Under the pieces are notes generated by a model. It saw only the letters and a program-made list of their open reading frames with translations. It had not been told where the DNA came from and did no database searches. A DNA stretch of 64,000 nucleotides from a virus, in IMG/VR virus record IMGVR_UViG_3300034374_007216, positions 18,799 through 82,798 of that record; one strand, written 5' to 3'. The position numbers and the translations under genes were made by a program. This document shows positions 6,932 to 62,423 of the stretch, one piece after another. Position 1 is the stretch's first letter. Every line of letters begins with the position of its first letter.

Positions 6932-7393
6932 TTACCATTGCCTAAAGACAGGTACTGAAGTATCTCCGTAGCCTAATTGCTGTAATGCTCTCATACGATG
7001 GCGACCATCATGACCCACAGGACTATCGGTAAATACATAGTCTGCTCTTGGTATTACAAAACGCATATCTTCTCCTTGCATTGCTCTTTGCATGAGGTTT
7101 TTGTAGTAATCATCTTCAACCATTTCATCTGTTCCTGTTTCTTGTAAGAATTGATTTGGAGTCATGTTGGTTATTTCCGCAAAATCTTCTAAATCACTTT
7201 CATGCGGTATTTCTCTTTCAGTTGAATCAAATGTTTTTCCTTCTTTTATCCAAACACCCGGTAATCCCCCATGAAGACTTTTATCTTGTGTCCAATCTTC
7301 ATTATCTCCTTGAGTGACAAAACGAATACCGGGTACATTTGTTTCATACACCGGCATTTTCAAAAACAACCAAGCCTTGTCCATCGGAGTCAT
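6932..7393 (-). CDS. AWxLLK-tagged ParB/sulfiredoxin-like protein
   Basis: 153 residues starting with the tag MTPMDKAWLFLKMP. The C terminus has HDGRHRMRALQQLG followed by VPV, resembling the GRHR-x-x-A box of ParB/Srx-fold proteins, which bind nucleotide or DNA. The ATG almost abuts the stop of the multi-tag gene 7396-9726. A small enzyme or DNA-binding cargo protein is my inference. The fold assignment rests on one motif only. Confidence 0.6.
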   Translation of the reverse strand: MTPMDKAWLFLKMPVYETNVPGIRFVTQGDNEDWTQDKSLHGGLPGVWIKEGKTFDSTEREIPHESDLEDFAEITNMTPNQFLQETGTDEMVEDDYYKNLMQRAMQGEDMRFVIPRADYVFTDSPVGHDGRHRMRALQQLGYGDTSVPVFRQW

Positions 7394-12487: not shown

Positions 12488-13168
12488 TTATCTTCTTGAG
12501 TGGTATTGACTACCCATTCTTTGCATCATTCTGTTTCTTTGGGAGTTTGGACCGCCGCCTCGTCTTGGTCGTACTTGGACTTTTGGTGTTGTTTGAATTG
12601 GCTTGAAAACATCTCTTCGTGGTGCAGGTGGTTTGGGCGTTGGTCGTGCGGGGTTTGCTTGAGGGAATCTTGGTTGTTCTATTCTTGCAGGGCCTTCGGG
12701 GTCATATGTTGGTACATCTTCGACCATCCCCATTCCGCCCATTGGCGACCAACTTCTTTCTTGATTTACTTCACTCATAGGAGTTTCATCATCCCTTGCA
12801 TACTCTTGCACAGTGCCATCCCATAGCACTTTATCATTATAATGTGCTGGATGTAAAGGGTCATAGGGTAAAGTTTGGAACATTTCCCAATCTTCAACGG
12901 GTTGAATACCTCGACGCTGATTTATTTTTTGTGCCGCAATCAAACGGTTTGCGTCGCTTTGATTACCTGTATTACCCAAATAACTTAACGAAGGAGCGGA
13001 GTGAATTTGAGCACCTGTAGGAGTCATGCCCTGTTCTTCGTATGCTTGTCGGTAATCGGCCATACGCTCCGGTGTCATACGCAACCCACCCGCTCTTGCG
13101 GCGTGTTGTAGGTCTTCACGACTAAGGGCTTTGAGAAGTTCCCATGCTTGATTAAAAGCACTCGCCAT
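12488..13168 (-). CDS. AWxLLK-tagged hypothetical protein
   Basis: 226 residues from ATG 13168, so that it begins with the tag MASAFNQAWELLKAL, as the neighbouring genes do. An in-frame ATG at 13192 would add eight residues. After the tag comes a helical, mildly basic region. The C-terminal 70 residues are rich in Pro and Arg (PRPTPKPPAPRRD, RPRRGGGPNSQRNRMM), so they are probably disordered and nucleic-acid binding. No enzyme fold recognised. Confidence 0.7.
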   Translation of the reverse strand: MASAFNQAWELLKALSREDLQHAARAGGLRMTPERMADYRQAYEEQGMTPTGAQIHSAPSLSYLGNTGNQSDANRLIAAQKINQRRGIQPVEDWEMFQTLPYDPLHPAHYNDKVLWDGTVQEYARDDETPMSEVNQERSWSPMGGMGMVEDVPTYDPEGPARIEQPRFPQANPARPTPKPPAPRRDVFKPIQTTPKVQVRPRRGGGPNSQRNRMMQRMGSQYHSRR

Positions 13169-13200
13169 GCAAGTCGTACGAACATTTAGCATATAAAAAT

Positions 13201-13881
13201 TTAGAAATCTGTAAGTGATGTTTGCTTTGACGGGTCAAAGGGCTTAGATTTGTTACGAGTTCGGTCCATAAACGGATAAGCACCAATGTCATATTCTTTC
13301 AATGGACTGTTTTCTGCGTAAGGAATTTCGGGTTCGTATAAAAATGAACTTGCTTCATGAATAGAATTATCATCGGGCCTTAAATTAGAAAAACTTAATC
13401 TAACACCGGGTGGTAAATTTTGCATAAATTTTTCATGAAAGGAATGTGATTTTTCATTTCTGTTGTCGGATTCAATGTTATAACCTCTTGCTAAAATAGC
13501 ACGAATTAATTTGTCGTAATATCCTTGCCTTCTATAATTTGAATTTGTAAATCCTTGAAAATTTCGTAATGTGTTTTCACCTAAATCAACATCGGAAAGA
13601 CCTGTAATAAAATGTTTATATTCTGGTGTTGCTAAATAAAAACCTGTTTGTCCATAATCGTTAAGATTTCTAACCAAAAGATTTGGGCGTGGCAAATAAA
13701 TTTCCGGCTCTCTAAACGCCCATTCACCTTCCGAATCAGCCCAATCAATTACTTCTCCGGTGTTTGGGTCGAACCGTTTTTGACTAAACAATCCGGCGAT
13801 TTGAGCCATAGTATTTTTATTGCTTAGTTGAGAAAATGGCGACTTAAGCAAGTTCCACGCTTGCTCAAACGGGGTCGCCAT
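13201..13881 (-). CDS. AWxLLK-tagged GNAT-like acetyltransferase
   Basis: 226 residues starting with the tag MATPFEQAWNLLKSP. The middle holds a GNAT-type acetyl-CoA-binding motif, NYRRQGYYDKLIRAIL (Arg/Gln-x-x-Gly-x-x pattern, about residues 119-134). It is followed by a strand and SHSFHEKFM, which fits the last helix of the fold. This suggests an N-acetyltransferase of unknown target, carried with a virion tag. The evidence is motif-level only. It is the first gene of the minus-strand operon that reads away from the control region. Confidence 0.6.
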   Translation of the reverse strand: MATPFEQAWNLLKSPFSQLSNKNTMAQIAGLFSQKRFDPNTGEVIDWADSEGEWAFREPEIYLPRPNLLVRNLNDYGQTGFYLATPEYKHFITGLSDVDLGENTLRNFQGFTNSNYRRQGYYDKLIRAILARGYNIESDNRNEKSHSFHEKFMQNLPPGVRLSFSNLRPDDNSIHEASSFLYEPEIPYAENSPLKEYDIGAYPFMDRTRNKSKPFDPSKQTSLTDF

Positions 13882-26021: not shown

Positions 26022-26329
26022 TTGACACAGACAAATACAAAGGGCATACACCCGTTAGGAAGGAATGGCCTCGTTGGTGCGAGGATTGGCTATACAGCAT
26101 ATATAATCGAAACGCATTGGTTGAAATCATCCCAAATTGGAATCAAGATAACAACCTTGCTTGCGACGCACCACTTATCCTTCAAGCATACGAAGAGAAA
26201 TGCAAAGAAGTCAAGCGGTTGCGTGAACGACTCATCCGAGCATACGATTGGGTTGAGAAAGTAGTTCACGGTGATGACTCAGTGATGGCGGATTACACGG
26301 AATATGTATGCGGAGATGAAGAAGAATGA
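26018..26329 (+). CDS. MIDTDKY family protein 1
   Basis: 103 residues beginning MIDTDKYKGHTP. It contains the family's second half, ACDAPLILQAYEEKCKEVKRLRERL, a helical segment like the DAPLLLAEVKRLRE sequence of phage Ea22-type proteins. The middle is specific to this copy. First of a tandem family made by duplication. Function unknown in the family. Confidence 0.7.
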   Translation: MIDTDKYKGHTPVRKEWPRWCEDWLYSIYNRNALVEIIPNWNQDNNLACDAPLILQAYEEKCKEVKRLRERLIRAYDWVEKVVHGDDSVMADYTEYVCGDEEE

Positions 26330-26655
26330 TTGACACAGACAAATACAAGTTAGTTAATGGAACAAGTTATGACAAGAGAACTGATGATGAAGTCATTAGA
26401 ATCTTAGAACACTGTCGCATGAATAACATCAGGGTCATCTTAGATTATGGCGACACTAAAACAGGTAAGTCTTGGAATGATAGATACGGTATTACAGGTA
26501 GGGTCGGTAGGTCAAGCGGTCAAATAAAAATCCCTATCCTTCTTCACAACAAAAGAAGTAATTGGGGAGGGGCTATGCTTACTCATTGTATAATCGGCAT
26601 CAAAAGAAGTAAAGGTAAAGATACACTTTACAGATGGAAGGAGATGATTGAATGA
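26326..26655 (+). CDS. MIDTDKY-headed phage protein
   Basis: 109 residues. Only the first seven residues match the MIDTDKY family. The rest (VNGTSYDKRTDDEVIRILE, LDYGDTKTGKSW, GRVGRSSGQIKIPILLHNKRS) matches a conserved hypothetical protein common in phages of bacteria. It looks as if the 5' end of a family member was joined to a different gene. Confidence 0.7.
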   Translation: MIDTDKYKLVNGTSYDKRTDDEVIRILEHCRMNNIRVILDYGDTKTGKSWNDRYGITGRVGRSSGQIKIPILLHNKRSNWGGAMLTHCIIGIKRSKGKDTLYRWKEMIE

Positions 26656-27035
26656 TTGACACAGACAAATATGGAGATATGACTATGAAAGATATAACTG
26701 CACCTATTGACGAAAAAACTGGTGAACCACAACAGATACCTGCAAGGTGGGAGGTTAAGTTGTGTTGGACAGAAGCGTATAGTATAATAGGCGGTGGTGA
26801 GGTGATTTGTAATCTAACAGGAAACAAAGACTCAGCAAACAGAAAGGAATGGGCTGAACTCATAGCAGACGCACCACTTCTCCTTGCCGAAGTCAAGCGA
26901 TTACAAGATGCACTCAAAGAGGCAGTTGAAGTTGTTAAGGAAATGGAGGGCATGGCATATGCTGGTGCTGATGCTGACAAGTTTGCTAACCATACGCTTG
27001 AGTTCATAGGGAATGTAAAGGAGTTGATTGAATGA
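26652..27035 (+). CDS. MIDTDKY family protein 2
   Basis: 127 residues: MIDTDKYGDMTM at the start, then a copy-specific part, then LIADAPLLLAEVKRLQDAL and a helical C terminus. ATGA-coupled on both sides through GATTGAATGATTGAC. Function unknown. Confidence 0.7.
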   Translation: MIDTDKYGDMTMKDITAPIDEKTGEPQQIPARWEVKLCWTEAYSIIGGGEVICNLTGNKDSANRKEWAELIADAPLLLAEVKRLQDALKEAVEVVKEMEGMAYAGADADKFANHTLEFIGNVKELIE

Positions 27036-27508
27036 TTGACACAGACAAATACGAAGGACATACAGAAGGTAAATGGCATTGCGAAACAGGGTCATCCATA
27101 GAGGGAGAAGAACAGGGAAGTGTTGAACTCATTTCTTCTCATTCCAAAGAGTTCCATGAGCGATGGTTGTCCGATGCTTCCCTTCGCCATGATGAGCAAC
27201 AGGATGAAAACACAATGGGCGAAAGAACGCAACACCTCATTACCAACATAGCGCACATGTACCACCCCAATGATGAAGGGAGATATGGCATGTGGTATGA
27301 AGAGCATAACAGACTTGTGCCAGATGAGATTTGGCAAAAGGAACAACGAGCGAACATGCGACTGATAGAAGACGCACCACTCCTGCTCGCAGAAGTCAAG
27401 CGGTTGCGTGAAGCATTACAAAAGATGCTAAATGACTTTGAAACGAAGAAAACTGATATGTGGACTATGCGAAACCGTATAGAAACTATACTCAAAGGAG
27501 ATGATTGA
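27032..27508 (+). CDS. MIDTDKY family protein 3
   Basis: 158 residues, the longest of the family: MIDTDKYEGHTEGKW, a copy-specific His-rich middle, then EDAPLLLAEVKRLREAL. Function unknown. The shared ends and unlike middle suggest recombination between family members or with incoming DNA. Confidence 0.7.
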   Translation: MIDTDKYEGHTEGKWHCETGSSIEGEEQGSVELISSHSKEFHERWLSDASLRHDEQQDENTMGERTQHLITNIAHMYHPNDEGRYGMWYEEHNRLVPDEIWQKEQRANMRLIEDAPLLLAEVKRLREALQKMLNDFETKKTDMWTMRNRIETILKGDD

Positions 27509-27901
27509 ATGATTGACACAGACAAATACGAAGGACATACACCTCCACCGTGGGAGTGCAACGACATAGAAGGGCGAGAGATATGGAAATGTCTTTTCAA
27601 TGGGGAGTGCTTCACTGACCCTTCAACCTACGGTACAGATGGCTATGAAGAAGTAGTGATTGCGACCATGAATCCGTTATCGGATGACGAGAACGAAGAA
27701 GAGTTCACGACAATGATGACCAACAAAATACTCATGGCAGACGCACCACTTTTCCTTGAGGAAGTCAAGCGGTTGCGTCGTGTTCTTGAGGACATTGAAT
27801 CCATGATACCCGACAACCACGAAGAGATAAGCCCTATCTTGAGCGACATCCTTAGCGAATGCCACAGGGTACTACCCATGTTTAACGAAGTGATTGAATG
27901 A
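27509..27901 (+). CDS. MIDTDKY family protein 4
   Basis: 130 residues: MIDTDKYEGHTPPPWEC, copy-specific middle, then MADAPLFLEEVKRLRRVL and a C terminus of its own. Stop overlaps the next ATG. Function unknown. Confidence 0.7.
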   Translation: MIDTDKYEGHTPPPWECNDIEGREIWKCLFNGECFTDPSTYGTDGYEEVVIATMNPLSDDENEEEFTTMMTNKILMADAPLFLEEVKRLRRVLEDIESMIPDNHEEISPILSDILSECHRVLPMFNEVIE

Positions 27902-30487: not shown

Positions 30488-31147
30488 ATGGTCGCACCTT
30501 TCGATGAGGCTTTCTCATACCTGCGACAAAATAATCCGACAGGACAATACATAGGTGGTAGCACAGGGGCGAGAAGATTCGACTTACCAATGGGGCAGTT
30601 CGTCGGTAAGCGTGGCGATAGCCCTGCTCACCTTCAAAACGAATTCGACATGAATCAATACTTGAATGCACTTGGCGTTGATGTACCACAGGCACAGGAA
30701 CAACTAATGGATGGGCGACCCATGATGCTTACTGAGTTTGAACAGGGTCAAGAATTAGGGCGAGCAAGCCCACAGGATATTCAACAATTAACGACGGACT
30801 TCGTGCCTCATGCCCTCATATCCAATTGGGATATGTTGGGGTTGGGGCGTGATAATGTCATACGCAGACCCGATGGTTCTCTTACCTATGTGGATGTAGG
30901 TGGGGCAGGTCCTTTCCGAGCACAAGGGGGGCATAAGGGTGCGTTTGGAACAAGCGTAGGGGAGTTAGATACCCTACGAGAAAAGAATCCCGAACTTGCA
31001 GGTATTACTGAACAAGACATCGGGCGGTCATTCGATGAGTACGGCGGTCAATCCGCTATGGAAGATGCGTTACAACATCTAAGAGATAGGCGTACTCAAG
31101 ACATTATGCGACAAAGAATACAGGATTTAACCCGCCGAGTCGCATAA
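30488..31147 (+). CDS. AWxLLK-tag-bearing HipA/PI-kinase-like protein
   Basis: 219 residues beginning MVAPFDEAFSYLRQ, a divergent form of the tag. Kinase-fold features: a Lys-containing strand (FVGKRGDSPAHLQNE), the catalytic-loop pattern ISNWDMLGLGRDNV (D, then DN), and YVDVGGAGPF in the place of the DFG/DxG metal-binding loop. This layout is that of HipA and phosphatidylinositol-kinase-like proteins. It is the only tagged gene inside the early plus-strand block and is separated from neighbours by about 30 bp on each side. A phosphotransferase loaded into virions and delivered to the host is my inference. Confidence 0.65.
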   Translation: MVAPFDEAFSYLRQNNPTGQYIGGSTGARRFDLPMGQFVGKRGDSPAHLQNEFDMNQYLNALGVDVPQAQEQLMDGRPMMLTEFEQGQELGRASPQDIQQLTTDFVPHALISNWDMLGLGRDNVIRRPDGSLTYVDVGGAGPFRAQGGHKGAFGTSVGELDTLREKNPELAGITEQDIGRSFDEYGGQSAMEDALQHLRDRRTQDIMRQRIQDLTRRVA

Positions 31148-42117: not shown

Positions 42118-42870
42118 ATGACACATGTTTTAGTTGATAGGAAAAAGTTTCTTGACTTTTTATCTTGCTTCGGCAAGAGTGCTACAGATTTACGATTAGA
42201 TTGTACAACATCAAGAATTACGGGTGAAATAGCATTTGCTCAGTATTTCTTTAGGCGACAGTTTAACGGTGCTACAGTCAAAGAAGAAGGCACGCTACAC
42301 ATTGTTTTCTTAGAAAAGGTAATTGCTTTCTTGAAGGCGAGCAAACAACCAACAGTTGAATTTCGACAAGTAAGTGTAGCAAAGCCCATACACATTGAAA
42401 GTGGCGGCAACAAGATACAACTGCCAAGCAGTGATGACATCATATCAGCAAGCAAAGTGCCTGTTGTGAAAAGAATGCTCGACAAATCTTTGAAGAACAA
42501 TTGGACATCATTTGCAGAAGATGAACTTACAGTACACGCTTCTATAGAAACTAAGGATTTAATTTCTCTTTCTTCAATGAAGAGTTTGGTATCGGATAAT
42601 GCTGAATACAAACTTCGTGTTCATTGCGGTGAGAAAGAGTTTGGTATCATTGCAGGTAAAGCAATTAGTGGTCGAATATTTACCACTATTCCAACAAATG
42701 ATTGCGATGGCCCGAACACTACTATCTCATCGAACTTTGGTAAGTGGTTGCCTACTTGTTTCATGTATCTCGATGACGGTCATGCAAGAGTACACATGGG
42801 TCAAGATACCGTTGTCATCTTTGAACAAGATAATACTTTACTCATGATAATAAACGAAAGTGATTTTTGA
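42118..42870 (+). CDS. PCNA-like sliding clamp
   Basis: 250 residues, exactly the length typical of PCNA monomers. It lies between clamp loader/RecA genes and PolB, the classical clamp position. Secondary-structure order is two similar halves of alternating beta strands and short helices, with a C-terminal strand DTVVIFEQDNTLLMIINESDF. Sequence motifs of PCNA are weak, so the call is largely from context and length. It would tether the viral polymerase to DNA. Confidence 0.7.
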   Translation: MTHVLVDRKKFLDFLSCFGKSATDLRLDCTTSRITGEIAFAQYFFRRQFNGATVKEEGTLHIVFLEKVIAFLKASKQPTVEFRQVSVAKPIHIESGGNKIQLPSSDDIISASKVPVVKRMLDKSLKNNWTSFAEDELTVHASIETKDLISLSSMKSLVSDNAEYKLRVHCGEKEFGIIAGKAISGRIFTTIPTNDCDGPNTTISSNFGKWLPTCFMYLDDGHARVHMGQDTVVIFEQDNTLLMIINESDF

Positions 42871-45266
42871 TGATTGTTGATTGGTTCTCGGAAGACCCGT
42901 ATGACCCGCCGACTATTTATGAGCGTACTCGTGATACTAACGGTAACTTACATGAAACATGGATTACCAGCGAAGATGAAGGATATGTTTATCCTTTCTG
43001 TTGGGTAAGGCAGAACGCTCCTACATGGGTACTGAATCGCCTTGTAAGAGCGAAAGCACGCATACAACACGACATAGTGGCGAAGGACATCAATGGATGC
43101 AAACTATGGCGAGTTGATACGAACCATCCAAATGCAGTGTGGGAAATCAAAGAGATGTGTGAGAAGTGGACTTGCGAAGCAGACCTTCCCTATCTTGACC
43201 AAATACTCATTCAAAGATACCCACATGGTATTCCAGAATTTGTACCTCGCAAGTGGTATTACGATATGGAATGGAAAACAGATGGTAAGGGGGAGATAAC
43301 AGTTATCGCTGTTGTTGATACCCATACAGATACACCTGTTGTATTTTCATGGAGTAAAGAATCCCAACAGAAGTTCTTGACTGATGACAAATACATTGAC
43401 AGGTATGGAGGCTACGAACTTCGGACTTATCCAAATGAAGATAGAATGCTCAAAGGATTCTTAGCACATCTCAAAGAATGCGACCCCGACATGCTCATTG
43501 CTCACGCAGGGGCGTGGGCTGACTTACCTAAATTGTATGAGCGTCTTGGTGATATGAGAAAGGACATGTCGCCGCTCGGTGTCTTTTTACCACCAAAGAA
43601 AAACGGTGAAGGTTACAAAAGTACAGCACAACCAATCAAAGGCAGACTCGTATTTGATACTGCGGCGATGTCATCCGAAGGCAGTGGCTTTGAGGGTGTA
43701 TGGCAGAAGTCGGGGCGGGGGCAAGCACAAGAGCGTAAGTTGAATTGGTTTGCTGTTGAATTAAACTTAGGACACAAACTTACCAATGAAATAGAAGGCA
43801 TGACTGTATTCAATGGTTGGGATGATTACTATGATGACTTCGTTGATTACTGTTTAGTTGATACTACTCTCCTTCGTGATATTGATGTAAAACTCAATTG
43901 TACCGATTTCCACTTAGCCTTGCAGAAGGTTGCAGGTGTTCAGTTCGCAAGCACTCACAATGTATCACGATACTTCCGTGGGTTGATTGCTCGCATTACT
44001 GATATGAAAGCACCGACGACATACAAAGAAACACGACCCGAACTACAGGCCGCATGGGTTATGCCACCAATTCCGGGCCGACATGAGAATGTAGCGTTAG
44101 TTGATTTTGCTTCGCTATATCCAAATATTATTTTATCAGCAAATCTTTGTTGGACTACGCTTACTGATAAGCCGGGTCCAAACACTCTCACTCTCGACAT
44201 TCCACCTAAGTTAGATGACAAAGGTAATCACATTCCGGGTACGGGTGGGGTGTTCCATTGGCGACAGGACATTGAAGGTATTCTTCCAAAGGCAGTGCGT
44301 CAATTACTCGCTTTGCGTAAATCATACAAGCAACGCATGAAAGACGCTACAGACCCCGACATCAAACTTGGTTATCACATGTTACAGATGGCGGTCAAGG
44401 TTGCGGTCAATGCTATCTATGGTATGGTGGGTATGAGTAAATTGCAGGGTGGATGGATAAGTTATCCTATCGCTCAATCAATTACTTATCTTGGTCGTAA
44501 GTCTATCACTATGCTTGTGGATAGAAGCGAAGAGATGGGTTATCGTGGTCTTGCAGGTCATACTGATTCTTGTTACATACAAGTTCCGTTTGATGAGGCT
44601 GAGGATGTAGCACAGAAACTTACAGATATTGCACAGAATGAAATGAATTTGAAATTCCTCGATGTTGAATTAGAAGCATTCTTCCCGTATTGGTTCACAG
44701 CCAATACTAAGAATCGTAACTTCGGCATCAAGTCCTACCCTCCCGAAGATGCGGGTGACATGAAGGTTACAGGTTATTCGTTGAAGGCATCGAATGCACC
44801 ACCGCTAACAAAAGAAATACTCATGAAAGTATTTACTATGATTTCAAACGGCGAAGAAGAGGATGCCATCTTTGATGAGGTTCGCCCTCACATCAAGCGT
44901 ACATACAATGGTGAGCGTGAAATTGATGAGGCGGCATCGTATGGTCGCATACAAAAACATCTTGATGATTATGATGTAGTAGTGCCTAATCCAGCGAAGG
45001 CGGCACGCTATTCAAACAGATACTTAGGTACGAATTACGGAAAGAATGAGAGTGTCAAATGGGTATTCATTGATGGTGTACCAAATGGTCAAGATGTATG
45101 TAATGTTATTGCTTACGACAAGGTGAAACAGTTGGAAGAATATTCTATAGATTGGTACACTGTGGTTGATAAGTGGATTAAGAAGAAATTAAAATCGGTG
45201 TATGAAGCACTCGATTGGGATTTAGAAAGACTCACAGCACTTCGTGCGGCGAGAAAATTATGGTGA
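42870..45266 (+). CDS. polB: Family B DNA polymerase
   Basis: 798 residues from ATG 42870 (TGATG overlap with the clamp stop). Exonuclease motif I YDMEW (Asp132, Glu134) indicates proofreading. Polymerase motif A DFASLYPN (Asp412), motif B KVAVNAIYG (from Lys510), and motif C GHTDSCYI (His564-Thr565-Asp566). Motif C usually reads DTDS; here the first Asp is His while the essential second Asp is kept. It replicates the viral genome. PolB is followed 4 bp later by the GHKL gene, implying one transcript. Confidence 0.95.
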   Translation: MIVDWFSEDPYDPPTIYERTRDTNGNLHETWITSEDEGYVYPFCWVRQNAPTWVLNRLVRAKARIQHDIVAKDINGCKLWRVDTNHPNAVWEIKEMCEKWTCEADLPYLDQILIQRYPHGIPEFVPRKWYYDMEWKTDGKGEITVIAVVDTHTDTPVVFSWSKESQQKFLTDDKYIDRYGGYELRTYPNEDRMLKGFLAHLKECDPDMLIAHAGAWADLPKLYERLGDMRKDMSPLGVFLPPKKNGEGYKSTAQPIKGRLVFDTAAMSSEGSGFEGVWQKSGRGQAQERKLNWFAVELNLGHKLTNEIEGMTVFNGWDDYYDDFVDYCLVDTTLLRDIDVKLNCTDFHLALQKVAGVQFASTHNVSRYFRGLIARITDMKAPTTYKETRPELQAAWVMPPIPGRHENVALVDFASLYPNIILSANLCWTTLTDKPGPNTLTLDIPPKLDDKGNHIPGTGGVFHWRQDIEGILPKAVRQLLALRKSYKQRMKDATDPDIKLGYHMLQMAVKVAVNAIYGMVGMSKLQGGWISYPIAQSITYLGRKSITMLVDRSEEMGYRGLAGHTDSCYIQVPFDEAEDVAQKLTDIAQNEMNLKFLDVELEAFFPYWFTANTKNRNFGIKSYPPEDAGDMKVTGYSLKASNAPPLTKEILMKVFTMISNGEEEDAIFDEVRPHIKRTYNGEREIDEAASYGRIQKHLDDYDVVVPNPAKAARYSNRYLGTNYGKNESVKWVFIDGVPNGQDVCNVIAYDKVKQLEEYSIDWYTVVDKWIKKKLKSVYEALDWDLERLTALRAARKLW

Positions 45267-45270
45267 TAAT

Positions 45271-46725
45271 ATGGCAAAGAGAATATTGAAAATGGAAAGT
45301 AATAACGAACTAATGGCTAACACAATGTCAAAAAGTGGATTCACTTTTTACACTGCGTTGAATGAATTGATTGATAATGCAATTGTATCAGCAAAAAACA
45401 TTTCAATCAATTTACTTGTTGAAAATTTTGGACAAAGAAGTATTAAGAAAATATCAGTCATTGATGACGGTTGCGGTATTTCTTTGGATGATGCAAGCAT
45501 TGCTTTGAGTGTAGGTGCAAGAACGAATCAAGGCATCAATGAACACGGAGTAGGTATGAAAAGTGCTATCGCTTATTTTGGAAATTCCGACATTCGTAGG
45601 GGATTAGATAAAATCAATTCATATGATGGAGTTGATTCGTATTGTATTTACGGATATGAAGGTAATGATTTGCTCATCGAAGATGATATGCCTATACCAG
45701 ATAATACAGGCACTAAGATTGTCATGAATATTGATTTGAATATTTATGCCGCACAAAGAGTTATTTCTCTAAGAGATTCATTGGGTGTAAGATATGGTCT
45801 TTTCATCAAAAATGGCGGCAGTATAGTAATCAACGAAGTGGATTTAAATGATGGTAAAATTATGAAAGACGCTAAAGGTAATCCTGTTACAACTAAAGTG
45901 AATGCAATTTTTCCACCTTACTTCCATCCAACAACTTTGACGAATGTTCATTTGATGAAGAAAGAAATCACAACAACAGACATCGTGGCAGAACTAACAA
46001 TTGGTATGAGTCCAGATGACCATGAAGGTGTGTGGGCTAAACAAAGTTATGGTGGGGGAATAGATGTTGTACAAAATGAAAGAGTGATTATGCACCGTTC
46101 ATATGAACCACTTACTACATGGCGAGCCAAAAATCACACATCATTGAATAGTCTTGTCGGTCAATTGGTCATTAAGGAAGGACATTTACCTACAACGCCG
46201 AAAAAAGACGGTGTACAACAAACAGATACTTGGGCTGAACTCAAGAAAGAAATAGCAGAAACAATAAAAGAAAACAAAATTAGTTCATTTTTTAATCCTC
46301 CCGAAGATGGTGATAATTATGATAGCGTAAGTGAATCTTTAATTCGTGATGCTTTGGCTGATTATTTGAAAGCCCAAACACTACCTACAGGGGAATCAAT
46401 ATGGGCAGATGTGAAGACAGAAGAATCAACAGATACGAACTTAAGTATGGATGCTACTGCTATGAGTGGTGATACATTTTATGTTTTTGAAGTTAAGAAA
46501 GGGAACTTCAATGCTCAAGACATGAATCAACTTGTTGGTTACATGGTTACAGTTGGTGCTACACACGGTGTAGTTTTCGCTAAGAATGTTCTCGCTAACG
46601 CTAAAAAGCAATTTGATGAACATTGGAAACCACTACTTAGTGATTTTAACATACAGTATTGGGATGAAAAATCAGTACAACACAAAACTGTTTTAACAAC
46701 TTATTTGAACATAGACGGTGAATAA
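45271..46725 (+). CDS. GHKL ATPase fused to nuclease-like domain (MORC-like)
   Basis: 484 residues from ATG 45271 (GGTGATAAT before it). The GHKL ATP-binding fold shows ELIDN (32-36, catalytic Glu and Mg-binding Asn), DDGCGI (65-70) and HGVGMKSA (92-99). The C-terminal third has VFEVKKG (Glu407, Lys409) followed by a helix and a strand GVVFAKN, the ExK core of a PD-(D/E)XK nuclease of Mrr/VRR-like type. ATP-gated clamps of this class include MutL, MORC, Hsp90 and topoisomerase VI-B. The C-terminal nuclease suggests DNA repair, recombination or defence. Location next to PolB favours a replication-linked role. Confidence 0.8.
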   Translation: MAKRILKMESNNELMANTMSKSGFTFYTALNELIDNAIVSAKNISINLLVENFGQRSIKKISVIDDGCGISLDDASIALSVGARTNQGINEHGVGMKSAIAYFGNSDIRRGLDKINSYDGVDSYCIYGYEGNDLLIEDDMPIPDNTGTKIVMNIDLNIYAAQRVISLRDSLGVRYGLFIKNGGSIVINEVDLNDGKIMKDAKGNPVTTKVNAIFPPYFHPTTLTNVHLMKKEITTTDIVAELTIGMSPDDHEGVWAKQSYGGGIDVVQNERVIMHRSYEPLTTWRAKNHTSLNSLVGQLVIKEGHLPTTPKKDGVQQTDTWAELKKEIAETIKENKISSFFNPPEDGDNYDSVSESLIRDALADYLKAQTLPTGESIWADVKTEESTDTNLSMDATAMSGDTFYVFEVKKGNFNAQDMNQLVGYMVTVGATHGVVFAKNVLANAKKQFDEHWKPLLSDFNIQYWDEKSVQHKTVLTTYLNIDGE

Positions 46726-46726
46726 A

Positions 46727-47161
46727 ATGAGTGGATTAGTAAAAGAATGTAAGCGGTGTAAGAAACCGTTCATGACTTGGAGTATCAAGGTGAGCGATGC
46801 TGTTGAATTCTGTGATACATGCAGAAATATTAGAAGAGAAGAAACGATGACGAAGAAGAAAACTGACAGATTTCACAACGACATTATTGCTATCGAAGAT
46901 AGAATGAAATCTATAGAACAGCATACTGAAGACATGATGAATAACATGTCAAGTGTCGTTAATGCTGAAATTCTTAATCTTACGCAAGATAGATTAGAAG
47001 TCATTACACAACAAATCCTCAATGATTTTAAACAGGAGGTAAATAAAATGTTAAAGAAGTTTGAAAAGAAAATGCAGAAGCAAAATACAATTATGCACAC
47101 GAGAATGAAGGACATGGAGAAAGTTTTAGGGGAATACTTAGGGGCTGAATTTGATGAGTAA
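46727..47161 (+). CDS. Zinc-finger coiled-coil protein
   Basis: 144 residues from ATG 46727. CKRC and CDTC within the first 40 residues form a likely zinc ribbon. The rest is a long amphipathic helix (about 50-140) with coiled-coil character. It could be an accessory of the GHKL protein upstream, from which it is separated by 1 bp. Function unknown. Confidence 0.7.
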   Translation: MSGLVKECKRCKKPFMTWSIKVSDAVEFCDTCRNIRREETMTKKKTDRFHNDIIAIEDRMKSIEQHTEDMMNNMSSVVNAEILNLTQDRLEVITQQILNDFKQEVNKMLKKFEKKMQKQNTIMHTRMKDMEKVLGEYLGAEFDE

Positions 47162-47569: not shown

Positions 47570-47703
47570 GCGGAAGATGTATGGGTTTTCCAAAAAATTC
47601 TTGTCGTGCGTACAGCGACTATGCTGATGCAAAAATGAAAGGTTGGATGTGTAAAAAGTGCAAAGAAAAAAGACTCTCTAAATGGCAAGGTGAAAATGTT
47701 TGA
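47566..47703 (+). CDS. Mini zinc-finger protein
   Basis: 45 residues from ATG 47566 (ATGA overlap), with C-x7-C and CKKC near the end, basic C terminus. One zinc site is likely. Its stop overlaps the TTG start of the HNH gene. Confidence 0.55.
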   Translation: MSGRCMGFPKNSCRAYSDYADAKMKGWMCKKCKEKRLSKWQGENV

Positions 47704-48149
47704 AGGTGTGTGAAATGAGTTATAGGCAAAAAGACAAAAATGGCAAACCTAAACCCGACAAAGAAGTAATTGCTAAACATTGGCTATTACCTTTAAATGA
47801 ATGTTGGGCTTGCGGTGTCGAAGACCCTGTTGAATTACATAGAGCACATATTTTCCCTTTACAATCGGGTGGAACAAATGATTGTGGTAATTTTCATCTA
47901 TTATGTTATGTATGTCATTATGAAAGTGAGCATTTGATTGAACAAGCATATGAACAATGGTTTTGGTTAAAAAGTAATATGTATCATAAAGGTAAGTTAC
48001 AATCTAATAATTTATTTGGTTGGAATTTTTTGAAAGAGGATGAAGATACGCATTATTCTAATTTACAAGCATTAGATGATTTGATTTATTTTTCCAAAAA
48101 GAATGTGGGATTTTGTTTAGAATGGAAGCGAGTGAATGAAGGCGTGTGA
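47700..48149 (+). CDS. HNH endonuclease
   Basis: 149 residues from TTG 47700 (TTGA overlap); ATG 47715 is an alternative. CWACG, then ELHRAHIFPLQSGGTNDCGNFHLLCYVCH is a zinc-stabilised HNH core (H-R-A-H, N-F-H-L-L-C, C-H). It nicks or cuts DNA. The free-standing gene may be a homing endonuclease or a recombination or packaging nuclease. Confidence 0.8.
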   Translation: MKVCEMSYRQKDKNGKPKPDKEVIAKHWLLPLNECWACGVEDPVELHRAHIFPLQSGGTNDCGNFHLLCYVCHYESEHLIEQAYEQWFWLKSNMYHKGKLQSNNLFGWNFLKEDEDTHYSNLQALDDLIYFSKKNVGFCLEWKRVNEGV

Positions 48150-48267
48150 ACTGTGTGGTAAAGAGGGTGGCGGTGTTCGCCATGCAAAGCATACTGCTTG
48201 CTTTTCATGTATTGATAAGATGCTTGAGTTTTGCATTACTGCGGGAATGAGGTTTGACAATGAGTGA
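48136..48267 (+). CDS. Mini zinc-finger protein
   Basis: 43 residues from ATG 48136: CELC and CFSC about 16 residues apart, with His between. Overlaps the HNH gene by 14 bp. Function unknown. Confidence 0.5.
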   Translation: MKACELCGKEGGGVRHAKHTACFSCIDKMLEFCITAGMRFDNE

Positions 48268-48343
48268 ATGTAACTTCTGCGAAGCAGACCACAATTGTTC
48301 GGTTTGTAAGAACTGCTCTATGCATTGCGATTGCGACGGTTAA
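48260..48343 (+). CDS. Cys-rich micro-protein
   Basis: 27 residues from ATG 48260 with eight Cys (CNFC, C, CKNC, C, C), enough to bind one or two metal ions. Overlaps the previous gene by 8 bp. Small but the Cys density argues for a real product. Confidence 0.45.
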   Translation: MSECNFCEADHNCSVCKNCSMHCDCDG

Positions 48344-48360
48344 GATGGTGAGGTGAACAC

Positions 48361-49284
48361 ATGGTAAAAATTAAGAATGCATTGGGGCTGTTTGATGGTA
48401 TTAGTTGTGGGCAAGTTGCTTTGCAACGGGCAGGTGTTACTTACGATACTTACTATGCGTCGGAGATTGTTGAAAATTCAATCAAAATTACTCAAAAGAA
48501 TTTTCCAAACACCGTTCAATTAGGCGACATCGCCAAATGGAGAGAATGGAACTTAGAAAATGTGGATTTGATTATAGGAGGCTCGCCGTGTCAAGGCTTT
48601 TCTGCCGCCGGAAACAAACTCAATTTTAATGACCCACGAAGTAAGTTGTTCTTTGATTTCGTGGATGTCTTGGAACATCACAAGCCGAAGTATTTTTTAT
48701 TGGAGAATGTTAAAATGAAGGGAGAGTGGCGTGACATTATTACTGAATACTTAGGCGTAAAACCTATTCTCATCAATTCCAATTTAGTGTCAGCACAAAA
48801 TAGACCGAGATATTATTGGACAAATATACCAAACATCCAACAACCACAAGACAAGGGTATTTTCCTCAAAGATATAATCGAAGATAATGTTGATGAAAAA
48901 TACTATCTTAGTCAAAAAAACAAAAACTTCCGAAGCGTCGCTACACCATTTGCTCTTACGGAAAGAAGAACCGAAGAAGCCAAAAAAATTAGGAGAGAAT
49001 ATCAACATAAATATGGAAGAGATTTTTCTCCAAGAAGAGGCAAGGAGTTGGTCGCAAGAAATGATGGGAAGATGAACTGTTTAACAAAAACCTATTCTCT
49101 CAAAGAACATACTCTTTTTGATAATCAAAACATTTACAGAAAATTAACTCCCGTTGAATGCGAAAGATTACAGACATTACCTAACGGTTATACTGCGGGT
49201 TTTAGCGATTCACAACGATACAAGGTGTTAGGCGACGGTTGGACAGTTGATGTAATCGCTCATATTTTTAGAAACATTCGGTGA
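48361..49284 (+). CDS. C5-cytosine DNA methyltransferase
   Basis: 307 residues with the classical motif series: LFDGISCGQVALQRAG (motif I), SPCQGFSAAG (motif IV, catalytic Cys77), ENVKM (motif VI), QNRPRYYW (motif VIII), LTPVECERLQTLP (motif IX), LGDGWTVDVIAHIF (motif X). It is complete and probably active. The short recognition region lies between 180 and 240. It likely methylates viral DNA for protection. No cognate restriction enzyme is next to it, though the HNH and GHKL/nuclease genes are close. Confidence 0.95.
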   Translation: MVKIKNALGLFDGISCGQVALQRAGVTYDTYYASEIVENSIKITQKNFPNTVQLGDIAKWREWNLENVDLIIGGSPCQGFSAAGNKLNFNDPRSKLFFDFVDVLEHHKPKYFLLENVKMKGEWRDIITEYLGVKPILINSNLVSAQNRPRYYWTNIPNIQQPQDKGIFLKDIIEDNVDEKYYLSQKNKNFRSVATPFALTERRTEEAKKIRREYQHKYGRDFSPRRGKELVARNDGKMNCLTKTYSLKEHTLFDNQNIYRKLTPVECERLQTLPNGYTAGFSDSQRYKVLGDGWTVDVIAHIFRNIR

Positions 49285-54054: not shown

Positions 54055-54652
54055 TGTGTTGGCATTAGATATTGAAACTACAAACTTCTCGTGGGAAATT
54101 GGAGGTTGGGATAAGACGGCATCGTTTGAACCATCAGTCGTGGCGACATGGGATGGTAACAAAGGAACTATCTATTGTGATGAATCCATTGATAATGAGC
54201 ATGTTGTAAAAGCCCTACATCCTCGTACTCTCGGAGATGACCTAACAGAACACATAGAAAAGGGCGGTGTAATCATAGGGCATAATATCAAATCATTTGA
54301 TTTACCCGTATTGCGTGATTCACTCGATTGTTGGGCTGTCAATGATTTACTTGGTAAATCCGATGCCGTCATAGATACAAGACATTTGATAAACAAAGCA
54401 TCTCTAAGTGTTGGTAAAGTTGATTTAACACTTGGTATGCTTGCAAAAACTACATTCAACGACAATAAGTTAATGAACAGTGCAGATGCACCGATTGCTT
54501 GGAGAGAGGGGCGATATGATGAGGTGGCAAAATACTGCTTGAGTGATGCCAAAATAACATACGATTTGTATGAGTTTGGTAAGAGTGAAGGCTACATTTC
54601 ATCACGAAGTCTTGAAACAGGCGATGTCGTTGAAATCCAAGTTGAGTGGTAA
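54047..54652 (+). CDS. DEDD-family 3'-5' exonuclease
   Basis: 201 residues from ATG 54047, overlapping the ATPase gene by 8 bp. ExoI LALDIETT (Asp8, Glu10), ExoII GHNIKSFDLPVL (His, Asn, then Asp), ExoIII YCLSDAKITYDLY (Tyr-x3-Asp). The Tyr in ExoIII makes it the DEDDy kind, like proofreading domains of DNA polymerases. Free-standing enzymes of this type trim DNA or RNA 3' ends. It adds to the proofreading domain already present in PolB. Confidence 0.85.
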   Translation: MSDVLALDIETTNFSWEIGGWDKTASFEPSVVATWDGNKGTIYCDESIDNEHVVKALHPRTLGDDLTEHIEKGGVIIGHNIKSFDLPVLRDSLDCWAVNDLLGKSDAVIDTRHLINKASLSVGKVDLTLGMLAKTTFNDNKLMNSADAPIAWREGRYDEVAKYCLSDAKITYDLYEFGKSEGYISSRSLETGDVVEIQVEW

Positions 54653-54654
54653 AT

Positions 54655-56154
54655 ATGGAGAAGGAAACAAACAAAGGAACAGCACAAGTACATAACATAA
54701 GAGCGGCGAAAACTGTAGCAGAAACAGTCAAATCAACGCTTGGCCCTATGGGTATGGATAAAATGATGGTGGATGGGCATGGCAATGTCATTGTAACAAA
54801 TGACGGTGCTACCATTCTTCGTGAATTAGATGTATCACATCCGGGCGGGAAGATGATTGCAGAAGTTGCAAAAACTCAAGAAACTCTTTGTTATGATGGA
54901 ACAACAAGTACAGTGGTACTCGCAGGTCAATTGTTAGGCAACAGCGAAACCCTGTTTGAAAAAGGGTTACACCCCAATGTCATTTGTCGTGGGTATCATG
55001 AAGCCGCACAGATGGCTGTCAAGTATCTTGCTGATGAAATTAAAATTGGCGACAAAAGTAATGAAGCATTGATAGGTGTAGCAAAAACTGCAATCACAGG
55101 TAAGACGCTTGAAAGTGCTCTCGATGCAGTAGCCTCACTTTGTGTATCAGCCGTACAAAAAGCGGGTGATGCAGAAAGCGTCAAGGTCGTATCGTTTGCA
55201 GGTGGTTCGTTAGAAGATTCTTACTTGTATGATGGTATCATTGTCAATAAGGACTATGTGCTTGAGGGTGAAGATAATTACTCACAAATGCTTCTCATCA
55301 ACGCAGGTCTTGAAGTTGAAAAGAGCGAAGAAAATGTACAGGTGCAATTGGATGCATCGTCATTCCAAACATACAAGAGTGCAGGTAAGGCTGATTTACT
55401 TTTACAAGCAAAAGAAATAGTTACCGCTTTGCCAAACGGCGGTGTTGTATTTGTACGGGATGGAGTACATGACATTGTTTGTGCTCATCTCAAAAAGAAC
55501 AATATCATGGTGGTACGAAGAGTACCCGAATCATCATTGCGTGCTTTGAGCCGTATGGCAAATACTCCAATCTATCAAACCGCAGAAGATATTGAGGCGG
55601 CGGCTGATGTAAAAATTACTCGTGAAAGAAAAAACGATGTTTGGTATTTGTTTGTTGATAGCGAACATGAATCAAACGAAGCAACACTTGTATTGCGTGG
55701 TGCTACAACGCACACACTTGAAGAAGTCGAGCGTGGGTTTGATGATGCACTTGGCGTAGTTTCACTCGTTATGAACAGTAAAGAGTATGTTGTTGGTGGA
55801 GGTAATTCGTATCTTCGCATGGCTGTACACCTACGCCAACATGCCGCACAGATTGGTGGAAGAGCACAAATGGCGATTGAAGCATTTGCTGACGCATTAG
55901 AAATTATCCCTGCCACGATTGCAGAAAATGCGGGGCATGACCCACTTGACACCATTCTTGCTATGCGACACGAGATTCTTCAAGGCAACACATCGGTAGG
56001 TCCAAATGTAACCAATGGTGGTGTCAAAGACCTGCTTGAAGATATGGTTATTGAACCCGTTGAATTAGTTCGTCAAGCGGTGCTAAGTGCGGCAGAAGTT
56101 ACTAATGCTATCTTACGCATTGACGACATTATTGCACGACGACCTACACAGTGA
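54655..56154 (+). CDS. Group II chaperonin (thermosome subunit)
   Basis: 499 residues from ATG 54655, shorter than cellular thermosome subunits (about 540). Motifs: STLGPMGMDKMM, NDGATILREL, YDGTTSTVVLAGQLL (the cellular form is GDGTT) and VVGGGNSYLRMA (cellular: GGGA-x-E). The ATP-binding and catalytic Asp of DGTT and a late Asp in FDDALGVV are kept, so it probably hydrolyses ATP. It folds proteins, perhaps capsid or replication proteins, or replaces host subunits. A thermosome gene is a known trait of magroviruses and points to an archaeal host. Confidence 0.95.
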   Translation: MEKETNKGTAQVHNIRAAKTVAETVKSTLGPMGMDKMMVDGHGNVIVTNDGATILRELDVSHPGGKMIAEVAKTQETLCYDGTTSTVVLAGQLLGNSETLFEKGLHPNVICRGYHEAAQMAVKYLADEIKIGDKSNEALIGVAKTAITGKTLESALDAVASLCVSAVQKAGDAESVKVVSFAGGSLEDSYLYDGIIVNKDYVLEGEDNYSQMLLINAGLEVEKSEENVQVQLDASSFQTYKSAGKADLLLQAKEIVTALPNGGVVFVRDGVHDIVCAHLKKNNIMVVRRVPESSLRALSRMANTPIYQTAEDIEAAADVKITRERKNDVWYLFVDSEHESNEATLVLRGATTHTLEEVERGFDDALGVVSLVMNSKEYVVGGGNSYLRMAVHLRQHAAQIGGRAQMAIEAFADALEIIPATIAENAGHDPLDTILAMRHEILQGNTSVGPNVTNGGVKDLLEDMVIEPVELVRQAVLSAAEVTNAILRIDDIIARRPTQ

Positions 56155-60414: not shown

Positions 60415-61131
60415 CTAATCACCCCTAAGCCAAGATTCACGAGTTTCTTGTACTAAAGGTTGAAATTCTTTACTCCAACCAAGAGCCATTCGACCATCTC
60501 TCGGTTGCCATTGAATTTGGTCAAAATAATCAGTTCCGAAACTTGGCATTTGAACAAGTCTTTCGGGTGGTATATCTTGTTCTAAATATGCTTCTGCTGG
60601 TTCACCCACATCACCTTCATTGCGGAATTGACCTGTTGTAATTTCAGCAGGTAATCGAATGCCTATCCATTTTCTATCTTCTGGATTTATATGTTGATGT
60701 ATTGGAACATCGGGAGGTGCAACAAAAGACCCTCTTTTTCCTTTGTCATCGTATAGTTCTTCAAATAAATTAAATGGAACTATACCATAATCGGGATTGA
60801 ATTCTTTAAAACCGTGTTGCATGATTATATCATGTTCCCAATCAATTGCATCGGGATGAGGCTCAGACCCAATAAGACCTGTATGGATTAACCTTTCAGC
60901 AGGTGGATGTAATATTTTATCACGAATTGCCTGTTCAATTTTTGCTCTTTTTTCTGCAACACTTAAATCTTCTAATTCTAATCTTGGGTCTTGCATATAC
61001 CAATCCATTGTAGGATGCCATCGAGTCATAGTTACCGGCCCATACGAACTTGGTAAATCGGGATGGAACTCACCTAATTCAGTTTGGCGAGTAGCCTTGA
61101 GGAAAACCCATGCTTTGTGAAAGGCGGTCAT
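60415..61131 (-). CDS. AWxLLK-tagged ART-like hypothetical protein
   Basis: 238 residues from ATG 61131 (TGA of the previous gene overlaps; ribosome site GGAGGG). Begins MTAFHKAWVFLKATRQ, the tag, then GEFHPDLPSSYGPV, which is shared with the next gene upstream. The C-terminal YLEQDIPPERLVQMP resembles the last strand of ADP-ribosyltransferase-fold enzymes (D/N-IPPE-x-L). An HIINQHGF-like middle is unassigned. Enzymatic role uncertain; a virion-delivered effector is the working idea. Confidence 0.6.
   Translation of the reverse strand: MTAFHKAWVFLKATRQTELGEFHPDLPSSYGPVTMTRWHPTMDWYMQDPRLELEDLSVAEKRAKIEQAIRDKILHPPAERLIHTGLIGSEPHPDAIDWEHDIIMQHGFKEFNPDYGIVPFNLFEELYDDKGKRGSFVAPPDVPIHQHINPEDRKWIGIRLPAEITTGQFRNEGDVGEPAEAYLEQDIPPERLVQMPSFGTDYFDQIQWQPRDGRMALGWSKEFQPLVQETRESWLRGD
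61033..61115. repeat. Duplicated tag-coding segment, copy 1
   Basis: 83 bp encoding KAWVFLKATRQ and GEFHPDLPSSYGP, 79 of 83 bases identical to 61603-61685. All four differences are silent. Direct repeat 570 bp apart in the same operon. Confidence 0.85.
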
Positions 61132-61991
61132 TGCGTTTCCCTCCATTCAATGAAGTCTTGGTCACGCTTTTGCTGTTCGGGATATAGGCTCTCATTCAAT
61201 CTCGCTTGTTCACTTGTTCTTCCAATTCTTACAAGTGCTTCGGGTGGAATGTTTTGTGGAATTGCATATGAATTGAACAACTGCCTTTCCCCGAACTCAT
61301 CGGGAGAATACGATTCATCCAAATAAGCATCGTTAAGCCTATTACCTCTTATCCCCCATACATCCATCGCTCCTGTGGGTGAACGAGCCGACACTTCACC
61401 ACCCATATCGTGTACCATCCTTACGACTTTCTCCATGTTGCTCGTCGTGGGTTCAATATTGTTATTAAGCATCCACGCCCAAACTGCTTTTTCGGGCATG
61501 TCTTCACTATGATATTGCTTCCAACCTTTTGTTGGTAAAGCCTTCATACCCTCGCTTTGGATTTGTTTTCTGCGAGACTCTTTTGTGTAGCGTGCTCCTC
61601 TCACCGGCCCATACGAACTTGGTAAATCGGGATGAAACTCACCCAACTCCGTTTGGCGAGTAGCCTTGAGGAAAACCCATGCTTTACTCATTGCTAATTT
61701 TTGTTGTCCGGGTTGATTAGCAATATCGGCACGCCATTGTTCTCTTTGTTGGCGTTCCATTGCCTCTTGCTTGTTCTTTTCAGCCTGTGCTTTTGCTTCT
61801 TCAATAGGAGTTAAGGTTGCTTGTACTCCACCGTCAAGGGTTGATTGCATACCGAATCGGGTTTGCCCTTGAGGGAGTTCTTTTTTCATGGGTAATTTTT
61901 TGTCTTTTGGAGTTTTAGCCTCAAATTCACGAGCCAACTTTGGGTGTTTTGCATACATAAAACGCCTTTGGGCTTGACTCTCAAATGGCAA
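61128..61991 (-). CDS. Tag-bearing virion protein, possible ART-like domain
   Basis: 287 residues. N-terminal FESQAQRRFMYAKHPKLAREFE is a motif of small capsid-region phage proteins. A charged linker follows, then the tag AMSKAWVFLKATRQ near residue 102, then about 170 residues in which SRRKQIQSEGMKALPTKGW, VWGIRGNRLNDAYL and IPQNIPPEALVRIGR could be the three parts of an ADP-ribosyltransferase-like fold. It looks like a structural piece joined through the tag to an enzyme-like piece. The ART assignment is tentative. Confidence 0.6.
   Translation of the reverse strand: MPFESQAQRRFMYAKHPKLAREFEAKTPKDKKLPMKKELPQGQTRFGMQSTLDGGVQATLTPIEEAKAQAEKNKQEAMERQQREQWRADIANQPGQQKLAMSKAWVFLKATRQTELGEFHPDLPSSYGPVRGARYTKESRRKQIQSEGMKALPTKGWKQYHSEDMPEKAVWAWMLNNNIEPTTSNMEKVVRMVHDMGGEVSARSPTGAMDVWGIRGNRLNDAYLDESYSPDEFGERQLFNSYAIPQNIPPEALVRIGRTSEQARLNESLYPEQQKRDQDFIEWRETQ
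61603..61685. repeat. Duplicated tag-coding segment, copy 2
   Basis: Second copy of the 83-bp direct repeat described at 61033-61115. Here the tag is internal, about residue 102 of the encoded protein, rather than at the N terminus. Confidence 0.85.
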
Positions 61992-61997
61992 CCATCC

Positions 61998-62423
61998 TCA
62001 CCACTTGACCTTATCAGCCCAATATGCGGCACTCATTGGACCACGAGCAATGTTTTTAGCGTGGCGAGATTTGAATGATTTACGCTTATTTTTCATGCGT
62101 TGAGATTCACCCGCTTTTGGTTTGCCAGCCACACTTGCACCTTGTTCACCAAATCGAATAGTCTTTGTTTTTCCACCCGACCTCGCTACAACAATATGTG
62201 ATTTCTTAGGATGATTAGGTGTACGCTTTGGTTTGTTAAACCCACTCACACCCGCACGAGCGAGGCGTGGGTCACGCTTTTGTGCTTTTTCTAACTCTTT
62301 ATATCCACCACATGAAGCACAATCGGGCCTACCGCAATAACTCCATCCTTCTTTATGTGAATAATCTTCACAGTCATATTGTTTGGCTTTAAGAAGATTC
62401 CATGCGTCATTCATTGGATTCAT
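61998..62423 (-). CDS. AWxLLK-tagged basic phage-type protein
   Basis: 141 residues starting with the tag MNPMNDAWNLLKAKQ. Next comes a Cys/His zinc-like stretch (CGRPDCASCGG), then KSHIVVARSGGKTKTIRFGEQGA and KSFKSRHAKNIARGPMSAAYWADKVKW. The latter matches a small, basic, conserved phage protein (DUF6321/DUF5872-like). Strongly basic, so it may bind packaged DNA. Overlaps the next gene by 4 bp. Confidence 0.7.
   Translation of the reverse strand: MNPMNDAWNLLKAKQYDCEDYSHKEGWSYCGRPDCASCGGYKELEKAQKRDPRLARAGVSGFNKPKRTPNHPKKSHIVVARSGGKTKTIRFGEQGASVAGKPKAGESQRMKNKRKSFKSRHAKNIARGPMSAAYWADKVKW

What the first reader, a model, noticed from the sequence alone, without database searches (positions are those of the whole stretch)
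45271..46725. GHKL ATPase joined to a PD-(D/E)XK nuclease-like domain, next to PolB
All three GHKL motifs are intact in the N-terminal part, and ExK with the expected following helix and strand appears at Glu407-Lys409. MORC, MutL and topoisomerase VI-B are related ATP-gated clamps, but a fusion with this nuclease class in a viral replication operon is unusual. It could be a DNA-clamping nuclease for mismatch or recombination repair, or an anti-host weapon. The zinc/coiled-coil protein 1 bp downstream may be its partner.
Basis: partly seen in the sequence, partly recalled or inferred. Interest (0 to 1): 0.72.

Follow-up and report, generated by a model that had tools for sequence, protein, structure and literature searches.

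The report
Virus-borne ATP-gated clamp nuclease gene
A tailed virus, probably of marine archaea, carries one protein that joins a DNA-clamp ATPase to a DNA-cutting domain; its cellular relatives lie among bacterial and archaeal antiviral genes, and the virus gene comes and goes as an exact single-gene cassette beside the DNA polymerase, so it looks like a tradable weapon or defence rather than replication machinery.

Summary
These nuclease residues are invariant in viral and cellular homologues, and the nuclease profile hits only NucS/EndoMS and Cas4 in the PDB. The fusion itself is not new: it has the architecture described as paraMORC3 in 2008, and a GHKL+Shedu-nuclease protein (VcSduA) is a tested antiphage system. 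What is new is the behaviour in these viruses. Of 77 related viral loci only 10 carry the gene, always directly after PolB. Genomes 93-96% identical differ by exactly this ORF, start to stop, and its tree conflicts with PolB's. It is therefore a horizontally exchanged accessory gene under strong purifying selection (dN/dS about 0.04), not core replication machinery. Several cellular homologues adjoin type I R-M, BREX, Sau3AI/MutH, SIR2 or DNA-methylase genes. The best reading is a virus-borne conflict nuclease, perhaps against rival viruses; target and activity are untested. The downstream zinc/coiled-coil gene is not its partner: 8 of 10 carriers lack it.

The parts
45271..46725 (+). GHKL-S5-PD-(D/E)XK protein, 484 aa
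   Evidence: 13 viral contigs with 64-100% identical homologues
45271..45810 (+). GHKL ATPase domain (about residues 1-180)
   Evidence: Pfam HATPase_c_3 8e-8; profile to TopoVI-B 2e-8; fold match to GyrB 43K and Hsp90
45364..45378 (+). N box, E32-LID-N36
   Evidence: E32 and D35 nearly invariant in 19 homologues
45463..45477 (+). G1 box, D65DGCG69
   Evidence: D65 and G69 invariant in 19 homologues
45547..45561 (+). G2 box / ATP lid, G93VGMK97, preceded by E91-H92
   Evidence: EHGxGxK invariant
45811..46305 (+). transducer (S5-like) domain and linker, about residues 181-345
   Evidence: GyrB-43K/TopoVI-B-type fold match over about 380 columns
46204..46206 (+). K312, probable ATP-sensing transducer lysine
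   Evidence: invariant in 19 homologues; its role is inferred from MutL/GyrB/TopoVI-B
46306..46722 (+). PD-(D/E)XK nuclease domain, residues 346-484
   Evidence: AF2 core; NucS/Cas4 profile hits; weak Pfam hits mostly to PD-(D/E)XK families
46333..46335 (+). E355, motif I Glu on first helix
   Evidence: invariant in the nuclease-domain alignment
46450..46452 (+). D394, upstream catalytic Asp
   Evidence: invariant; aligns with the Asp of the D-ExK motif of NucS
46489..46497 (+). E407-V-K409, ExK motif
   Evidence: invariant
46528..46542 (+). Q420-xxx-Y424, RecB/Cas4/NucS-type motif
   Evidence: invariant
45262..45266 (+). left cassette border: GGTGA overlapping the PolB stop, before the start codon
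   Evidence: corresponds to the exact breakpoint with empty sites in near-isogenic genomes
46717..46729 (+). right cassette border: GGTGA at the gene's 3' end, then the next gene's ATG
   Evidence: corresponds to the exact breakpoint with empty sites in near-isogenic genomes
42867..45266 (+). family B DNA polymerase, always directly upstream of the gene
   Evidence: Pfam DNA_pol_B 1e-42; synteny

Best explanation
The gene encodes a paraMORC3-type ATP-gated DNA clamp nuclease. Proposed mechanism: ATP binding closes the two GHKL heads of a homodimer (the ATPase N-gate); the transducer domains form a cavity that holds DNA; the two C-terminal PD-(D/E)XK domains cut both strands in a metal-dependent way; ATP hydrolysis resets the clamp. 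In these tailed viruses it is an accessory conflict gene taken from a cellular defence repertoire. It is traded between related viruses as an exact one-gene cassette that fits between PolB and the next gene at Shine-Dalgarno-start borders, and is most likely used against competing DNA (other viruses or plasmids). Shown here: domains, motifs, fold, purifying selection, single-gene presence/absence, gene-tree conflict, and defence neighbours of several cellular homologues. Inferred: dimer, DNA clamping, cleavage, target, cellular origin and the conflict role.
For: Architecture and invariant E-D-ExK-Q-Y and GHKL residues in viral and cellular homologues; AF2 fold; GyrB/Hsp90 fold matches for the N-terminal part; NucS/Cas4 profile matches. 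Cellular homologues in defence neighbourhoods: Clostridium after a type I R-M set R, M, S; Haloarcula after PglX and BrxHII; Robertmurraya with SIR2 PDC-S65 and dGTPase; Priestia plasmid among REases, C5-MTase, SNF2 and MutH/Sau3AI; Lactiplantibacillus near Sau3AI. Accessory and mobile: 10 of 77 loci; exact ORF presence/absence in near-isogenic pairs; at least 5 state changes on the PolB tree; gene-tree conflict, AU p=1e-7, and L018/L021 94% identical against 67% for PolB. Precedent: VcSduA needs both ATPase and nuclease residues for antiphage activity (PMC12137116).
Against: The gene is always in the replication operon and more constrained than PolB in most compared pairs (dN/dS 0.037-0.055), which also suits a housekeeping DNA role. 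No modification or immunity gene is conserved beside it, so how self-cleavage is avoided is unknown. The viral clade is very divergent from cellular homologues (branch 2.6 changes per site). Several cellular homologues showed no obvious defence gene in the flanks (read by eye). No activity, partner or target has been measured.
Confidence: 0.5

Rival explanations
1. Auxiliary repair or recombination nuclease of the virus: a MutL-like clamp with a NucS-like nuclease that nicks mismatched, branched or broken DNA during replication.
For: Directly 3' of PolB in all carriers, among RecA-like, Cas4-like, primase and ERCC4 genes; strong purifying selection; nuclease profile nearest to NucS/EndoMS, a mismatch endonuclease, and Cas4; ATPase part resembles MutL and TopoVI-B; in an unrelated virus a homologue lies next to a UvsX-like recombinase.
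Against: 67 of 77 related viruses lack it with the rest of the replication module intact, including 93-96% identical genomes; cellular homologues lie in defence islands.
Confidence: 0.25
2. Anti-host or counter-defence factor: degrades host chromosome or plasmids, or blocks host immunity, as the GHKL protein rIIA is thought to do in T4-like phages.
For: rIIA proteins are among the viral fold matches and have been grouped with phage counter-defence (PMC7824862); a sporadic, mobile gene fits an arms race.
Against: rIIA C-terminal regions are described as highly variable, whereas here the nuclease is the most conserved part (82.5%); no host data.
Confidence: 0.13
3. Free-standing homing-type endonuclease that spreads by cutting empty PolB-adjacent alleles.
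For: One fixed slot beside a conserved polymerase gene, occupied/empty alleles, horizontal movement, nuclease fold.
Against: No flank co-conversion: identity steps from 64% to 86% exactly at the start codon between L064 and L073, and near-isogenic flanks match up to the junction; cellular homologues are in defence islands; no known DNA-recognition module.
Confidence: 0.1

Closest known systems
paraMORC3 family (Iyer, Abhiman, Aravind 2008, PMC2292703)
   Same: GHKL + S5 + C-terminal restriction-endonuclease-fold domain with E-D-ExK; sporadic, laterally mobile; some standalone.
   Different: Described in cellular genomes, many in R-M neighbourhoods; here a divergent viral clade beside a viral PolB, with no conserved R-M partner.
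VcSduA, GHKL-type Shedu type I-D (PMC12137116)
   Same: N-terminal GHKL plus C-terminal PD-(D/E)XK in one standalone protein; both sites needed for antiphage defence.
   Different: Its nuclease is SduA_C/DUF4263, which this protein does not match; it is a bacterial chromosomal island gene.
NucS/EndoMS and Cas4 nucleases
   Same: Nuclease domain has the same D-ExK-Q-Y motif order and gives profile hits.
   Different: No GHKL domain; NucS is a housekeeping mismatch endonuclease.
MutL, TopoVI-B, GyrB, MORC
   Same: GHKL plus transducer ATPase part.
   Different: Different C-terminal effectors; the MutL curated cut-off is not reached (24 against 180 bits).
T4-type rIIA
   Same: Virus-encoded GHKL protein with an added C-terminal region; fold matches.
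   Different: A conserved PD-(D/E)XK nuclease is the C-terminal part here.

Membership tests
paraMORC3 | N-terminal GHKL with conserved ATP-binding motifs | tested here: met
paraMORC3 | S5-type transducer domain after the GHKL | tested here: met
   AF2 model matches GyrB 43K and TopoVI-B N-terminal regions including the transducer; K312 invariant
paraMORC3 | C-terminal restriction-endonuclease-fold domain with E-D-ExK, RecB-like | tested here: met
   E355, D394, E407, K409 invariant; Cas4 and NucS profile hits
paraMORC3 | sequence relationship to the originally listed paraMORC3 proteins | not tested
   those sequences were not retrieved; homology shown only to same-architecture cellular proteins
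paraMORC3 | linkage to R-M or SFII helicase genes (not universal in the family) | tested here: inconclusive
   met for several cellular homologues; not conserved around the viral gene
Shedu (type I-D, VcSduA-like) | SduA_C / DUF4263 nuclease domain | tested here: not met
   PF14082 not matched by the protein, the isolated domain, the 19-member domain set or the virus record
Shedu (type I-D, VcSduA-like) | GHKL ATPase N-terminal regulatory domain | tested here: met
Shedu (type I-D, VcSduA-like) | antiviral activity needing both active sites | not testable with these tools
   needs an experiment
MutL | match to MutL above the curated cut-off | tested here: not met
   24.2 bits against 180
Free-standing homing endonuclease | occupied and empty alleles at one site in a conserved gene region | tested here: met
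Free-standing homing endonuclease | co-conversion of flanking DNA on transfer | tested here: not met
   sharp identity step at the ORF borders
Free-standing homing endonuclease | cleavage of the empty allele | not testable with these tools
   needs purified protein

The most novel reading that the evidence does not exclude
Marine archaeal tailed viruses carry a domesticated ATP-gated clamp nuclease from cellular immunity as an interviral weapon, and trade it as a precise single-gene cassette through crossovers at the Shine-Dalgarno-start borders behind PolB.
Probability: 0.35. Interest if true: 0.72.

Novelty: new variant of a known kind. Interest (0 to 1): 0.52.

Why it matters
It places a defence-island protein architecture inside the replication operon of uncultured marine viruses and gives a natural experiment: near-identical viral genomes with and without exactly this gene. 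That makes it testable whether clamp nucleases of this type protect one virus against another, and what DNA they recognise. It also shows gene-by-gene exchange between viruses at ribosome-binding-site borders.

Tried and rejected
Zinc/coiled-coil gene as obligate partner: rejected. C5-methylase and HNH genes at 47700-49284 as a conserved R-M set with the nuclease: rejected, seen only in the window and its 100% copies. Core replication gene: first suggested by synteny and high conservation, then rejected by the PolB-anchored survey. Shedu membership: not met. MzaB (PADLOC) and MutL (NCBIfam) hits: weak and limited to the N-terminal GHKL motifs. tblastn against phage and plasmid records with the window protein at 1e-3: no match. 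First genome scan with the viral profile plus L041: no relative; success came only after using the plasmid homologue. L052 hit: chance match in a structural protein. First AF2 model with 8 close rows: poor (pLDDT 54). The original Shedu paper and the magrovirus reference genome ON649702 were not held.

Full report
Observation. The ORF at 45271-46725 encodes 484 residues and follows the PolB stop by 4 bp. Pfam gives HATPase_c_3 at 8e-8, and the GHKL boxes E32-LID-N36, D65DGCG69 and G93VGMK97 are intact. The isolated C-terminal part gives only weak Pfam hits, but these are mostly PD-(D/E)XK families: NERD, Cas4, Mrr, Hjc, NucS_C. A 19-row alignment of viral and cellular homologues leaves D65, G69, E91, H92, G93, G95, K97, K312, D394, E407, K409, Q420 and Y424 invariant; E355 is also invariant when the nuclease domain is aligned alone. 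The profile of that domain matches three PDB sequences only, all PD-(D/E)XK: NucS (3e-4), Cas4 (4e-4) and EndoMS (0.18). The full-length profile matches TopoVI-B (2e-8), GyrB, MutL and MORC. AlphaFold2 reaches pLDDT 82 and pTM 0.65, with helix 355-368, strands 379-386, 392-399 and 402-413, helix 415-428 and strand 432-440. The N-terminal part matches GyrB 43K and Hsp90 structures. The nuclease domain was not fold-searched on its own.

Virus. The window is part of an 82.8 kb virus record. It has PolB, a clamp-loader-like AAA protein, a Cas4/PDDEXK_1 nuclease, an ERCC4 nuclease, an archaeal-type chaperonin (Cpn60_TCP1 2.6e-123), an SNF2 helicase and an HMG-CoA lyase-like gene. PolB finds haloarchaeal tailed viruses among its best-covered matches at 23% identity. 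Chaperonin, HMG-CoA lyase and the replication set resemble magroviruses of marine Poseidoniales (PMC10768690). The host assignment is therefore an inference.

Distribution. Thirteen IMG/VR contigs carry the gene at 64-100% identity, always with PolB upstream and the same flanking replication genes where the contig reaches. A survey anchored on PolB gave 80 loci; of 77 with at least 2 kb downstream, 10 carry the gene, and no distant homologue was found in the others. On the PolB tree the presence/absence pattern needs 6 changes, at least 5 on well-supported branches. Genomes 93-96% identical differ by exactly this ORF: L073/L067, L073/L068, L058/L059, L086/L100 and L064/L065. The break points fall at GGTGA-like ribosome-binding sites and start codons; such sites precede 25 of 37 gene starts examined against 8.7% of all ATGs. 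Gene and PolB trees conflict: the grouping L017+L019 seen in the PolB tree is rejected by the nuclease gene (AU p=1e-7), and W+L017, strongly supported by the nuclease gene, is rejected by PolB (p=0.005). L018 and L021 share 94% of residues in this gene but 67% in PolB. Identity steps sharply at the gene borders, so no flank was co-transferred. For W and L017 synonymous divergence of gene and PolB is equal, so their high protein identity alone is not evidence of transfer; the tree conflict is. Direction (gain or loss) in each near-isogenic pair cannot be told.

Selection. dN/dS is 0.037-0.055 for the gene against 0.06-0.12 for PolB; the nuclease domain is the most conserved part, 82.5% mean identity. 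Synonymous sites are near saturation, so the ratios are approximate.

The slot. Without the gene the PolB-to-Cas4 interval is 104-1613 bp and holds varied small genes, including a CoiA_N protein and a DNA N6/N4-methylase. In the window it also holds an HNH gene and a C5-methylase. The zinc/coiled-coil family downstream occurs in 12 loci, 10 of them without the nuclease, so it is not a required partner.

Cellular relatives. A Priestia plasmid protein (28% identical to the distant viral homologue in L041, E=3e-29; 26% to the window protein, E=4e-4) lies among REases, SbcCD, C5-methylase, SNF2 and MutH/Sau3AI genes. A Lactiplantibacillus homologue lies near a Sau3AI REase. A genome scan gave homologues in Clostridium, Chloroflexota, Omnitrophota, haloarchaea and others. 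PADLOC models identify type I R, M and S genes just upstream in Clostridium, a type I methylase nearby in a Clostridia genome, SIR2 PDC-S65, dGTPase and a DrmC-like protein in Robertmurraya, and PglX and BrxHII directly upstream in Haloarcula. Only selected neighbours were scanned, so this is not an enrichment statistic. Homologues are rare, 1 full-length match in 394 genomes of the Haloarcula phylum. Homologues also occur on other mobile DNA: between two large serine recombinases (L163) and next to a UvsX-like gene (L041). The viral clade sits on a long branch.

Interpretation. The architecture is that of paraMORC3 (PMC2292703) and is functionally paralleled by VcSduA (PMC12137116), whose nuclease is of the DUF4263 type that this protein does not match. 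The molecular function, an ATP-gated nuclease, is well supported by sequence and fold but unmeasured. The biological role is less certain: mobility, accessory status and defence-island relatives favour a conflict role; constant placement behind PolB and strong constraint keep a repair role open.

Noticed in passing
window 6932-7393 (-), 12488-13192 (-), 13201-13881 (-), 30488-31147 (+), 60415-61146 (-), 61998-62423 (-): Six otherwise different proteins share an N-terminal peptide of the form M..[FM][DNEHK].A[WF].[FLY]L[KR] (e.g. MASAFNQAWELLK, MATPFEQAWNLLK); none of 200 shuffles gave a match (the pattern was written after seeing the sequences). Possibly a virion-targeting or processing signal.
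   Followed up: partly
L067:4074-4790, absent from near-isogenic L073: An N6/N4 DNA methylase gene sits as another one-gene insertion just before PolB.
   Followed up: partly
window 47700-49284: HNH endonuclease and C5 DNA methylase genes inserted in the same PolB-Cas4 slot, seen only in this virus and its near-identical copies.
   Followed up: partly
window 11621-12457 (-), 54646-56154 (+): HMG-CoA lyase-like and archaeal-type chaperonin genes in a viral genome, as in magroviruses.
   Followed up: partly
window 26326-27901 (+): Three neighbouring small ORFs begin with nearly the same peptide MIDTDKY(EGHT), apparently tandem paralogues.
   Followed up: no
L041 (IMGVR_UViG_3300028394_000260): A different virus with a divergent copy of the same fusion directly upstream of a UvsX-like recombinase gene, with a ThyX-like gene (recognised by eye) further downstream.
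   Followed up: partly
L163:800-5997: A homologue of the fusion lies between two large serine recombinase genes (recognised by eye) on a viral/mobile contig.
   Followed up: no
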